A stretch of 46,300 nucleotides of DNA, taken from the IMG/VR virus record IMGVR_UViG_3300048088_000032, positions 1 to 46,300 of that record; one strand, 5' to 3'. Positions within the stretch are counted from its first letter, which is position 1. Each line of letters begins with the position of its first letter. A program made the position numbers and the translations under genes. The notes beneath the pieces are model-generated. The model was not told where the DNA came from. It searched no databases and saw only the letters and a program-made list of their open reading frames with translations. This stretch comes from a virus. This document shows positions 42,589 through 46,300 of this stretch, piece by piece.

Positions 42589-42756
42589 TTATTCCTTGCG
42601 AGCGCTCCAAAACTCGGTTAGTCCAGTTCGTATCTGTTCTGCCGCTTGCTCGCCGAATGCGGCTCCGATTTCGGCTATCAGCGTTCGCCTTCGGTCTACA
42701 GTCCAATCAACAATTTCTTCGATGACTTCGAGAAGGCGTTTGCGGTCATGGATCAC
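42589..42756 (-). CDS. Small coiled-coil protein with GTG start
   Basis: 55 residues from GTG 42756, which overlaps the stop of the primase-helicase gene (GTGA). MIHDRKRLLEVIEEIVDWTV, then ERRRTLIAEIGAAFGEQAA-type helices and LTEFWSARKE. Too short for a normal search cutoff but fits the gene chain and codon pattern. Unknown role, perhaps a helicase accessory factor. Confidence 0.6.
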   Translation of the reverse strand: MIHDRKRLLEVIEEIVDWTVDRRRTLIAEIGAAFGEQAAEQIRTGLTEFWSARKE

Positions 42757-44486
42757 GCTGCCTCCTTCTTGCGGTGATGCATCGAATAGGTGTTCGGCAA
42801 AACGTTCTTCTTGTACGGCTTGTAGCGCCCGCAGATATGGTCGTAATCGAACTCAACCATGCCAACCTTCCCATTGGTCTTTTTACGGACCTTCTGCACA
42901 TGCACCTGGACTGGCGATCCGGTTTGAACAACGTCGCGATAGACGGTGATGCAGTTATCGGCCTTGTTGCGCCAGTGAGCCGAGCCGCTAACGTCGTAAG
43001 GCGTAGGGACTGGGTAAGCGCCGCTTGTTTTGTCTTTCTGCAACTTCGTCGGGTGTGCAACCAGCCAGACATGGACCTGATTTTTGCGCGCGAATGCACG
43101 GATTCTCGTCAGCGCCTGACTGATGTAGTCCGTTTCAGTAACGTTACCGTCACGGGCAGGATTGATCTCATTCCACGGGTCGACAATGAGGCCGCGGATT
43201 CCGTGACGCAGTACGAGCTGCTGGGCGATCTCCAGCAATCCATCCACGGTTGGATAGTCCGGCAGCATGAAGTGGAAGTGTTCGTTGACAAACTTCAACG
43301 CGTCGCCCATTTCCTTGAACGACATGCGATCTGTAAAGCCTTCCATGAACGGCTTCCCGACGATCTTTTCGGTCATCTTTTCGACGTGGTACTTCAGCGG
43401 CTGATTTTCTGGCGAGAAAATGCCGAAATTCCATCCGTAGTGGTGCGCGAGATTAAGAGCAAGGGCATCCAGCCATTCGCTCTTGCCATGCCCGGGGATA
43501 CCAGTTACAAGCGTCCATTCGCCGGTCATGACTCGGTACGTGTCGTCCATTTCCGCCCAGCTTGTCGAAACGCCGCGCTCCGGGCCGTACTCGTAGTCGT
43601 TGAAGATCGACTCGATAATGTCGTCGACGCTGTACGTTCCCTCGATAGGAAGGGCGCGCGCATTACCGATGCAATCGGCAAGAATCTCGGCGCCATGCTT
43701 CAAAAGAACCTCATTAGCGTCCTTGCAATCTTCCGGCCATACGACGATCAGGCACTTCTCGCGCCCCAAGCGGCGCACCAGCTCTTCCTGCAATCGGACT
43801 CCCGGCTCGTCGCTGTCAACGGCGATGATGTGCAACTTGACCGCCTCAAGCGCCTTCTCGGTCAGAAAGTCGAATTTGTTGCTGTACGACTTCGAGTCGG
43901 CGGCCGGCGCACCGTCAGGGACCGACACACAACTCGTCAGGCCAGCCATCTCGACCGACAACTTGTCAATCTCGCCTTCTACCCAGACCAGCACGTCCGG
44001 GTTGATATCGTTGATACCGTACAGGATTCGCTCAGCGCCAGCCGCCATGCGGAACAGTTTGTCCTTGGACCGATACTTGACGTTCACGACTTCCTCACCG
44101 CGGAAGTAGGGGAACAGAATGCAATCCCGCTCTTCCTCGACCTGCGGGAAGTAGATCGATCCCTTGGTGATCCGGTTGCGCTCGATCACCGTTGCATCGA
44201 TACCACGTGTTTTGAACCATGCCACCGTTCCGTCAGGGGCCTGCGTCGCTGCGACGAATACCGGCTTGGTGTACGCCTTGCGGATTTCCGGCTTCTGCCA
44301 TTCTCCGCCCTTGAGCGTCCCGCTCCACCCACAATGCCAGCAGTTGAAAAGCCCCTGTTCCGTGTTCACGTTTAAGCACGGATAGTTCTTTTTCTTCCGG
44401 CTGGGCGAGCATTGCGGACAGGTCACTTTGACCTCTACGCCGCTCTTGCCGCTCACGTCGATTCCGAAATCGCTAAAGGTTTTCAC
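42753..44486 (-). CDS. Primase-helicase (zinc finger, TOPRIM, RecA-fold)
   Basis: 577 residues. Zinc ribbon C23-x2-C26 ... C49-x2-C52, TOPRIM with E170 (VWVEGEIDKLS) and D224-x-D226 (IAVDSDEPG), and a DnaB/Twinkle-like helicase with Walker A GIPGHGKS (329-336) and GLIVDPWNEI as motif B. T7 gp4-like; it lays primers and unwinds DNA at the phage fork. It follows the O-like initiator by an ATGA overlap. Basic tail (HHRKKEAA). The domain order suggests both activities are intact. Confidence 0.88.
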   Translation of the reverse strand: MKTFSDFGIDVSGKSGVEVKVTCPQCSPSRKKKNYPCLNVNTEQGLFNCWHCGWSGTLKGGEWQKPEIRKAYTKPVFVAATQAPDGTVAWFKTRGIDATVIERNRITKGSIYFPQVEEERDCILFPYFRGEEVVNVKYRSKDKLFRMAAGAERILYGINDINPDVLVWVEGEIDKLSVEMAGLTSCVSVPDGAPAADSKSYSNKFDFLTEKALEAVKLHIIAVDSDEPGVRLQEELVRRLGREKCLIVVWPEDCKDANEVLLKHGAEILADCIGNARALPIEGTYSVDDIIESIFNDYEYGPERGVSTSWAEMDDTYRVMTGEWTLVTGIPGHGKSEWLDALALNLAHHYGWNFGIFSPENQPLKYHVEKMTEKIVGKPFMEGFTDRMSFKEMGDALKFVNEHFHFMLPDYPTVDGLLEIAQQLVLRHGIRGLIVDPWNEINPARDGNVTETDYISQALTRIRAFARKNQVHVWLVAHPTKLQKDKTSGAYPVPTPYDVSGSAHWRNKADNCITVYRDVVQTGSPVQVHVQKVRKKTNGKVGMVEFDYDHICGRYKPYKKNVLPNTYSMHHRKKEAA

Positions 44487-45130
44487 AGTACCAACCCCGA
44501 TGTGTTTCCGTTGCCTTTCGGCTTGCCATTGATCTTTGCCCAGTCGTCGCGGATCGCATTCATCAGCGCCGAATCCCAGTTCGCGTAGGTATAGCCGTTT
44601 GCTTCCACCTTCCGCACGAACGAATCGAAGTGCTCGTCGAGCCGTTCAAAACCTTCTTTCGCCGCCCACGCAACAACTCGCTCGCTAATCCCAAAATCTT
44701 CCGGCATAGCCGTCTTGGGTGATTTGGTCCGCGTAGCGGGCTTTCTCTTACTCTTTTCTTCTCTCCTCTCTTCTTCTCTCTTCTGGGGCGTTTCTGTAAC
44801 GTTACATCCCTGTTCCTGCAACTGTTTCTGTGCCTCACGATGCTTGCGAACCCGCTCTGTGCTTGAGTCAGACGGCTTTTGCCGCTTGTCCCAATTAAGC
44901 AGATTCCAGTCGTCATCCATGAACCGTTTGGCGATGAAAAGTGCCTTTGTCTCCGCAAGATGCGTTTCATCGATACGCAGTGCGAAACAGATGTCCGTTA
45001 CCTGTAACGTTTCAAGAACGTTACTGCAACGTAGGCACATCAACATCAACAGCCGGCGCTGCATGGCCTCGGGCATGCTCTGCACTTTCGGATCGGTCGC
45101 AAACTCTGCGTACATCCGGAACCATTCCAA
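44483..45130 (-). CDS. O-like replication initiator
   Basis: 215 residues. MEWFRMYAEFATDPKVQSMPEAMQRRLLMLMCLRC opens the family of phage O-like initiators; a basic linker of mixed charge (KREEERREEKSKRKPATRTK) and a C-terminal helical domain (FGISERVVAWAAKEGFERLDEHFDSFVRKVEANG) follow. Start is TTG 45130 with an AAGGGG ribosome-binding site 6 nt ahead. CGTTAC repeats and a purine tract lie within the gene, where the origin is expected. It loads the helicase encoded next. Confidence 0.75.
   Translation of the reverse strand: MEWFRMYAEFATDPKVQSMPEAMQRRLLMLMCLRCSNVLETLQVTDICFALRIDETHLAETKALFIAKRFMDDDWNLLNWDKRQKPSDSSTERVRKHREAQKQLQEQGCNVTETPQKREEERREEKSKRKPATRTKSPKTAMPEDFGISERVVAWAAKEGFERLDEHFDSFVRKVEANGYTYANWDSALMNAIRDDWAKINGKPKGNGNTSGLVL
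44741..44784. other. Polypyrimidine/polypurine tract in the initiator gene
   Basis: 34 uninterrupted pyrimidines on the plus strand (44751-44784) preceded by nine more (44741-44749), so 43 of 44 bases. It codes for the charged linker. Position inside the initiator gene suggests a helper of origin melting or a recombination point, but it may follow only from the Glu/Arg/Lys codons. Confidence 0.45.
44796..45032. repeat. CGTTAC/GTAACG motifs, candidate origin iterons
   Basis: GTAACGTTAC palindrome at 44796-44805, CGTTAC at 44996-45001 and 45019-45024, GTAACG at 45004-45009, and a partial CAACGTAG copy at 45029 onward. They fall in the initiator gene. In lambdoid phages the initiator binds repeats within its own gene. 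Confidence 0.4.
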
Positions 45131-45424: not shown

Positions 45425-45511
45425 TCAACCTCCGCAGAACGGAATCAGAATCGTCGCCACCAGGCAAGCGCCAAAAGCGATGACACAAAGGACGAAAACC
45501 GCAGTGCGCAT
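45425..45511 (-). CDS. Small membrane protein (28 residues)
   Basis: MRTAVFVLCVIAFGACLVAT, then ILIPFCGG: one membrane helix. ATG 45511 shares a base with the CII-like gene's stop (TAATG), and its stop is one base before the next ATG. Coupling supports expression. Confidence 0.55.
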   Translation of the reverse strand: MRTAVFVLCVIAFGACLVATILIPFCGG

Positions 45512-45864
45512 TACGCCGCCCTCGCTGCCGCAAGTTGTTCCTCAAGTTGCCGGATCTTGGCGTCTTTCGACTCCACCAGATCACAGCCCGCGTTCATTGC
45601 CTCGTACTGGACCGGAGCGCGGTTCCCGCACAGCCGCATGAGCGCCAGCCGCTTGTGAGTCGGGAACCCCGCCTGGCCCTGCATCATGCGAGAGAAATGT
45701 CCTTTGTCGATTGACAGTTCCTTGCTGATGTACTCGTGCGTGAATCGACTCAGTTGAATGCACAACCGGATCGCATCCAGCTCGTCGTCGCACATGTTCA
45801 AAAGCTCGACCGGAACGTTCTGAAGCTTCTTAGGCTCACCATGAACTGCCAATTCGCGTTGCAT
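45511..45864 (-). CDS. CII-position DNA-binding regulator
   Basis: 117 residues from ATG 45864. Residues 24-75 read as a helix-turn-helix (ELDAIRLCIQLSRFTHEYISKELSIDKGHFSRMMQGQAGFP), residues 96-115 as a short coiled coil that could mediate oligomers. It stands where lambda cII stands: after cro and a tR1-like terminator, before the O-like gene, and TTG repeats of CII type lie just upstream of its start. Probably controls the lysogeny decision or DNA replication. Not homologous to CII in any motif I can see. Confidence 0.6.
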   Translation of the reverse strand: MQRELAVHGEPKKLQNVPVELLNMCDDELDAIRLCIQLSRFTHEYISKELSIDKGHFSRMMQGQAGFPTHKRLALMRLCGNRAPVQYEAMNAGCDLVESKDAKIRQLEEQLAAARAA

Positions 45865-45874
45865 TTGATTTCCC

Positions 45875-45898
45875 TTGTTGAGGGTTGACTGGAGTTGA
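45875..45898 (+). promoter_or_regulatory. CII-type direct repeats, possible PRE-like promoter
   Basis: TTGT, TTGA and TTGA at 45875, 45885 and 45895, so exactly 10-nt period (TTGN N6 TTGN), the geometry of a lambda CII site. On the plus strand they face the cro gene and the repressor gene expected beyond the edge. A TAAACA 10 nt past the last repeat could be the -10. Confidence 0.4.
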
Positions 45899-45907
45899 CG
45901 GTCCCTG

Positions 45908-45944
45908 CTAAACAAAAATGGAGTCATATCAACGCACTCCATTT
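45908..45944 (-). terminator. tR1-like terminator between cro and the CII-like gene
   Basis: 9-bp stem 45936-45944 / 45916-45924, 11-nt loop, then TTTTTGTTT on the minus strand. Same place as lambda tR1. Confidence 0.6.
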
Positions 45945-46007: not shown

Positions 46008-46300
46008 TTAGTTGCGCCGCTTTGCTTCCTTGGTTTTCCGGCTAGACGTCCCGCCCGGATTGTTTTGCGCGTCGTCGCTCGCCTTGACTCGCTCTACAAT
46101 GTCGCTATCGGCGATCGACTGCGCGGAGCTACGGATGTAGGCCCAATCGACATCGGGTCGCAAGTCTTCGACGCGAACCGCACCCGCAGAAGCCTTCTCG
46201 ATCTCAATGGCCAAAGACTCAGCACACCGACGTTGCTTGTAGGCGATCTGCCAGAGATATGCGACGGAGGTTCCGACCTTAGTGGCGAACGCATCGCGCT
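46008..46300 (-). CDS. Cro/YdaS-like repressor, truncated by window edge
   Basis: About 97 residues visible, open at the right edge. RDAFATKVGTSVAYLWQIAYKQRRCAESLAIEIEKASAGAV is the YdaS/Cro helix-turn-helix (helix 3 at VAYLWQIA), followed by VEDLRPDVDWAYIR, the typical end of the YdaS domain. The C-terminal 40 residues are polar and basic (GGTSSRKTKEAKRRN). First gene of the early operon; the cI-type repressor is expected on the plus strand beyond the edge. Confidence 0.75.
   Translation of the reverse strand, partial: RDAFATKVGTSVAYLWQIAYKQRRCAESLAIEIEKASAGAVRVEDLRPDVDWAYIRSSAQSIADSDIVERVKASDDAQNNPGGTSSRKTKEAKRRN

What the first reader, a model, noticed from the sequence alone, without database searches (positions are those of the whole stretch)
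45875..45944. Lambda-like switch elements without an obvious CII homolog
Between the Cro-like and CII-position genes are a tR1-like terminator and TTG repeats in the CII geometry (TTGN N6 TTGN, twice), facing the expected repressor gene. The protein encoded next is not clearly CII, so a different activator might use the same DNA code.
Basis: partly seen in the sequence, partly recalled or inferred. Interest (0 to 1): 0.5.

Follow-up and report, generated by a model that had tools for sequence, protein, structure and literature searches.

The report
Four-repeat operator over a phage regulator's start
Upstream of a little-known phage regulator gene lies a row of four TTG signals exactly one DNA turn apart, kept in dozens of related phages, which looks like an enlarged version of the DNA switch that phage lambda uses to become dormant, run by a different protein.

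Summary
On the minus strand, between a YdaS-type (Cro-position) gene and a 117-aa HTH gene, lie a T-run terminator and four, not three, CAA triplets (TTG on +) at exact 10-bp steps; the fourth abuts the start codon. The 117-aa protein is not CII or YdaT by Pfam. Among 59 contigs carrying its relatives, 40 have four in-phase repeats, 8 three, 10 two, 1 one; first-order Markov sequences reach four in 2 of 11,800 trials. The array keeps its place whether the start codon lies after, inside or (probably) before it, so it is conserved as DNA. Nine lambdoid phages examined have at most two such triplets, typically inside the start of cII. Triple arrays occur almost nowhere else in 15 whole records. 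The neighbourhood (opposed repressor, Cro/YdaS, this gene) is lambda-like. Best reading: the operator of the adjacent protein, probably working as a CII-like establishment site with double the half-sites. Binding, and activation rather than repression, are inferred; no convincing -10 was found. Among annotated phages searched, only Xanthomonas phage PBR31 has this gene. New variant of a known kind.

The parts
46008..46298 (-). Cro-position gene, YdaS-like HTH protein, 5' end cut off by the end of the record
   Evidence: Pfam YdaS_toxin E 8.7e-10, 38.7 bits against cut-off 30
45910..45944 (-). intrinsic-terminator-like hairpin with T-run (tR1 position)
   Evidence: sequence; fold -19.3 kcal/mol, z -2.76; a T-run at nearly the same distance from the array in 32 of 34 loci
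45894..45905 (-). conserved block GGGACCGTCAAC: edge of the array with the best conserved repeat (GTCAAC; GTTGAC on +)
   Evidence: logo of 39 deduplicated loci
45865..45897 (+). array of four TTG (CAA on minus) at 45865, 45875, 45885, 45895, exact 10-bp steps; proposed operator
   Evidence: conserved in relatives
45511..45864 (-). 117-aa HTH protein gene in the cII position; proposed regulator that reads the array
   Evidence: AlphaFold2 pLDDT 85.1; lambda-repressor-like/XRE folds in VIA-align; PHROG 2345 'transcriptional regulator' E 0.0036
44483..45130 (-). replication gene (DnaD-like helicase loader), downstream as O is in lambda
   Evidence: PHROG 10469 E 4e-12
42753..44486 (-). primase/helicase gene
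   Evidence: PHROG 239 E 8.4e-89

Best explanation
The four TTG repeats are the DNA operator of the HTH protein encoded right beside them. The protein would sit on one face of the helix across successive turns. As with CII at pRE in lambda, the site straddles the start of the regulator's own gene and points at the repressor gene, so the most likely job is to switch on an antisense transcript through the cro-position gene into the repressor gene when lysogeny is being set up. Occupying four half-sites over its own translation start would also let it damp its own operon. Shown here: the array, its 10-bp period, its tie to this protein family, its conservation as DNA, and the lambda-like gene order in relatives. 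Inferred: binding, oligomeric state, activation.
For: Protein-first: of 59 contigs with the protein, 40 have four in-phase CAA, 8 three, 10 two, 1 one; Markov sequences reach four in 2 of 11,800; periods 8, 9, 11 and 12 never exceed three. In the 26 contigs found by protein alone, 16/3/7 have 4/3/2 repeats. DNA-first: of 102 places matching TTGN6GTTGACGGTCC, all 14 with four repeats have the gene within 700 nt, against 7 of 88 with two. Position relative to the start codon varies (after, inside, probably before), so the constraint is on DNA. Nine of nine lambdoid cII regions have a maximum of two in-phase CAA; in 8 of 9 the reported pair is at base 10-13 of cII. Triple arrays in 15 whole records: 29 of 32 hits are at this locus. 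Gene order: a YdaS model above cut-off in 6 of 10 cro-position ORFs and below it in 2; S24 or HTH repressor models above cut-off on the opposite strand in 5 of 8 and 7 of 10. The terminator T-run starts 20-25 nt from the array in 32 of 34 loci, overlapping where lambda's pRE -10 lies.
Against: No binding data. No convincing -10: the best mean match to TATAAT is 3.29 of 6 at a gap of 16, confounded by the terminator's T-run, and the five loci without terminator show no such peak. Lambda CII has several targets (PI, PRE, PAQ), but only one array per genome is seen here. Homology to CII is weak (hhalign probability 27%). The Paraburkholderia-type clade keeps only two exact repeats.
Confidence: 0.55

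Rival explanations
1. Autorepressor: the protein binds the array to block its own leader or translation start (roadblock or promoter-distal repression) and does not activate a repressor promoter.
For: The array abuts or overlaps the start codon; it is almost the only such site in the genomes scanned; no -10 found.
Against: The place and geometry match the CII site inside cII of lambdoid phages, and the gene order is that of an establishment switch.
Confidence: 0.22
2. Head-to-tail polymer like the excisionase-type regulators (186 Apl, P2 Cox): one monomer per repeat, cooperative and spreading, with DNA bending, repressing an early or lysogenic promoter.
For: Apl operators are direct repeats about one helix turn apart and need three or more for binding in vitro (PMC7498355, passages); the same layout of four is seen here.
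Against: No second array was seen that could be an attachment-site array; triple arrays occur almost only here. The predicted fold ranks with XRE/lambda-repressor-like HTH proteins.
Confidence: 0.12
3. RNA-level leader element: CAA triplets in the mRNA act on translation.
For: They sit at the ribosome-binding region in the window group.
Against: Exact 10-nt period with no comparable runs at 8, 9, 11 or 12; the array lies wholly or partly inside the reading frame in other clades.
Confidence: 0.06
4. Chance plus common descent of a short leader.
For: Some loci are near-identical (deduplication removed 8 of 47).
Against: Proteins only 41-50% identical to the window's keep four repeats; most spacer positions vary while the triplets do not.
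Confidence: 0.03

Closest known systems
Phage lambda CII and its pRE site
   Same: Direct TTGN-N6-TTGN repeats 10 bp apart, read toward the repressor, overlapping the start region of the regulator gene between cro and O; gene order
   Different: At most two in-phase repeats in lambda and 8 other lambdoid phages, four here; protein not recognisable as CII by Pfam or BLASTP; only one array per genome found here
YdaT (CII equivalent of CP-933P and Rac-type prophages)
   Same: Follows a YdaS gene, HTH protein, CII role; activates PRE933P (PMC8630535, PMC9986795, passages)
   Different: YdaT binds an inverted repeat TTGATT-N6-AATCAA as a tetramer with 222 symmetry (PMC9986795, passages); here the repeats are direct, and there is no Pfam YdaT hit
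Phage 186 regulator 6vli (186 CII; that identity is recalled)
   Same: Predicted fold aligns, Z 7.2, 71 residues, rmsd 2.9; 186 CII has the CII role and is stated to be unrelated to lambda CII (PMC7708051, abstract passage)
   Different: Z is tied with many other XRE-like proteins, so no specific kinship; Phage_CP76 matches 1 of 39 members at E 0.013
186 Apl / P2 Cox excisionase-type regulators
   Same: Arrays of direct repeats about one turn apart (PMC7498355, passages)
   Different: No second array that could be an attachment-site array; a different HTH fold class (recalled for Apl/Cox)
Xanthomonas phage PBR31 orf001 'putative repressor'
   Same: Same protein family (59% identity) with three in-phase repeats
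   Different: The PBR31 paper mentions proteins similar to repressors of lambda and P22, and the term CII does not occur in it (PMC10975493, passages)

Membership tests
Lambda CII family (Pfam Phage_CII) | sequence match to the family | tested here: not met
   Absent from all Pfam hits at E <= 0.1 of 39 members; BLASTP none; hhalign to 9 CII proteins probability 26.9%, E 6.8e-4, 30 columns on the HTH; PHROG 101 'CII-like' matches 1 of 39 at 4.5e-5
Lambda CII family (Pfam Phage_CII) | direct TTGC-N6-TTGC site overlapping the gene start | tested here: inconclusive
   TTGN-N6-TTGN geometry and place met, but four repeats, and the repeat nearest the terminator is TTGA not TTGC
Lambda CII family (Pfam Phage_CII) | several target promoters (repressor, integrase, anti-Q) | tested here: inconclusive
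   one array per record; two-repeat sites cannot be told from chance
Lambda CII family (Pfam Phage_CII) | activates transcription of the repressor gene | not testable with these tools
   no -10 established
YdaT | sequence match and inverted-repeat operator | tested here: not met
   no YdaT model among Pfam hits of 39 members; repeats are direct
Lambda-repressor-like / XRE HTH fold | helical HTH domain with that fold | tested here: met
   AF2 model pLDDT 85.1; VIA-align Z 6-8 to many XRE/lambda-repressor-like domains; Foldseek best E only 0.51
Excisionase-type regulators (Apl/Cox) | operator arrays at both attachment site and switch | tested here: inconclusive
   triple arrays almost only at this locus in 15 records; attachment sites were not located

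The most novel reading that the evidence does not exclude
A third, unrelated solution to the CII job: an HTH protein family that binds four head-to-tail half-sites as one cooperative unit (two tetramers or a short filament) laid over its own start codon, giving a steeper lysogeny-establishment switch than lambda's two-site CII while damping its own synthesis.
Probability: 0.3. Interest if true: 0.65.

Novelty: new variant of a known kind. Interest (0 to 1): 0.5.

Why it matters
Lysogeny decisions outside enteric lambdoid phages are poorly known. If the reading is right, three proteins without recognisable common sequence (CII, YdaT, this one) occupy the same slot, and two of them share one DNA code (TTG direct repeats one turn apart, over the regulator's start). 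That makes it testable whether the code is imposed by how an activator must face RNA polymerase, and whether doubling the half-sites sharpens the decision. It also gives an annotation handle for a family that had one relative in 50,697 phage records.

Tried and rejected
Antisense -10 box: scoring TATAAT at every gap after the last TTG gave a peak (3.29 of 6 at gap 16) that cannot be separated from the terminator's A/T tract; the five loci without terminator show no such peak. Left as inconclusive.

Some others are regular arrays near other genes; Pfam on 10 neighbouring ORFs found no shared regulator (one integrase, L138). Not pursued.

The array-to-start figure counted from the last GTCAAC, not the first, so it was not used; distances are taken.

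Solved-structure sequence search with A1: nothing credible. Foldseek had no hit below E 0.5. Lambda CII was not in the VIA-align list, which does not exclude it. Plasmids: no match. Prokaryote genomes of one order: 1 of 399 has a match, the seed itself.

Literature: seven searches listed no paper whose title or abstract start describes a four-repeat CII-type array; only open-licence PMC papers are held, so absence from print is not shown. Read in passages only: PMC9986795, PMC10975493, PMC7498355, PMC8630535, PMC7708051.

Bias: A4 and A5 were built from array-selected loci, so 20 of the 59 contigs count as array-selected. Leaving those out leaves 39: the 26 (16/3/7 with 4/3/2 repeats) plus 13 new ones (4/5/3/1 with 4/3/2/1; my reading against the lists).

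Full report
What is there. The window is a whole 46,300-base virus record. Near its right end, on the minus strand, come a YdaS-like gene in the cro position (46298-46008, cut by the end; Pfam E 8.7e-10), a hairpin with a T-run (45944-45910; -19.3 kcal/mol, z -2.76), an array of CAA triplets, and a 117-aa gene (45864-45511), followed by replication genes. The array is CAACTCCAGT CAACCCTCAA CAAGGGAAAT CAA|ATG: four triplets at exact 10-bp steps, read as TTG on the plus strand at 45865, 45875, 45885 and 45895. It is the only x4 array in the window.

The array belongs to a protein family. Searches with the protein found relatives in IMG/VR, in two Paraburkholderia genomes and in one annotated phage, Xanthomonas phage PBR31. 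In the 26 contigs reached without using the array (24 viral, the window, PBR31), 16 have four in-phase CAA, 3 three and 7 two; CAA stands out from the other trinucleotides (16 contigs with a run of four; the next best has 1), and other spacings from 7 to 14 give at most two. In all 59 protein-found contigs the counts are 40, 8, 10 and 1 for four, three, two and one; Markov-1 sequences reach four in 2 of 11,800 trials. Some of the 59 were first met through array patterns; the clean subset is given under Tried and rejected. The reverse search agrees: of 102 places matching TTGN6GTTGACGGTCC, 14 have four repeats and all 14 have the gene; of 88 with two repeats, 7 have it.

It is conserved as DNA. 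In the window's group the array ends at or before the start codon; in a second group (MSNHSQREM-type) the likely start codon lies between the second and third repeats; in a third (L062, L063, L071, L092, L094, L097) the likely start lies upstream, so the whole array would be translated. Start codons are inferred, and downstream alternatives exist. Since 10 is not a multiple of 3, each repeat falls in another codon phase, so a protein-level cause is unlikely. In the 39-locus logo the triplets, and the GTCAAC of the first repeat, are near invariant while most spacer positions vary; the logo includes array-selected loci and was anchored on the first repeat.

Comparison with lambda. In lambda, GCAA-N6-GCAA lies at codons 4-8 of cII. 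In lambda and eight further lambdoid phages the maximum in-phase run is two; in eight of the nine the reported pair begins at base 10-13 of the ORF, and in P22 the pair reported lies elsewhere (a tie), though CAA-N7-CAA is visible at base 10 there too. The HK630 and mEp213 records annotate a putative CII binding site inside cII. So the place and the helical spacing are the same here, with the number of half-sites doubled.

The protein. AlphaFold2 gives a confident helical HTH domain and a C-terminal helix (pLDDT 85.1). VIA-align lists many XRE/lambda-repressor-like domains at Z 6-8, all tied, including a bacteriophage 186 regulator (6vli, Z 7.2). Pfam finds no CII or YdaT model in any of 39 members. 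Profile comparison with nine CII proteins aligns the HTH helices weakly (probability 26.9%, E 6.8e-4). It is thus not a member of the CII family on the evidence; remote kinship is possible.

Neighbourhood. I picked candidate repressor ORFs on the opposite strand upstream from ORF lists: S24 or HTH models above cut-off in 5 of 8 and 7 of 10. Cro-position ORFs: YdaS above cut-off in 6 of 10, YdaS or P22_Cro below it in 2, other HTH in 1, none in 1; two more cro-position ORFs (L124, L134) had no hit. The window's own repressor is off the record.

How it probably works. YdaT shows that a non-CII protein after YdaS can do CII's job at a promoter between the two genes (PMC8630535, PMC9986795, passages). 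The array here points the same way as lambda's pRE. The terminator's T-run begins 20-25 nt from the first triplet in 32 of 34 loci, while the first triplet lies 33 to 68 nt before the start codon in the window-type loci and nearer or beyond it in the others; lambda's -10 lies at about -20 to -15 on the same scale (sequence). That may mean the T/A tract doubles as the -10 region of the antisense promoter, but the match to TATAAT is poor and the loci without terminator do not support it. Activation is therefore an inference from layout. Autorepression and Apl-like polymer binding (PMC7498355, passages) remain open.

One site per genome. Four-repeat arrays: 7 of 14 records scanned have one, exactly one each, at this gene. 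Three-repeat arrays: 32 hits in 15 records, 29 of them at this gene (overlapping sub-arrays count separately). Unlike CII, no second target is visible, though two-repeat sites could not be told from chance.

One suggestive exception. The Paraburkholderia-type clade (L128-L133) has only two exact repeats and a different C-terminal tail. This is one lineage, so it only hints that oligomer and repeat number go together.

Noticed in passing
L154, L176, L200, L202, L208, L219, L230, L238, L248 (viral contigs): Regular 10-bp GTCAAC arrays, some with many copies, in phages without this HTH gene nearby; possibly operators or integrase/excisionase sites of unrelated proteins.
   Followed up: partly
L138:2373-3431 and array near L138:4730-4764: A GTCAAC array about 1.3 kb from a tyrosine integrase gene (Phage_integrase E 2.2e-30).
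   Followed up: no
L128-L133, just upstream of the regulator gene: In the two-repeat clade the array overlaps a small hairpin GCCTC-GCAA-GAGGC (or close variants) with a GNRA-type loop, not noticed in the other clades.
   Followed up: no
window 46298-46008: Pfam still calls the Cro-position protein 'YdaS toxin', although published work treats YdaS/YdaT as Cro/CII equivalents (PMC8630535, passages).
   Followed up: no
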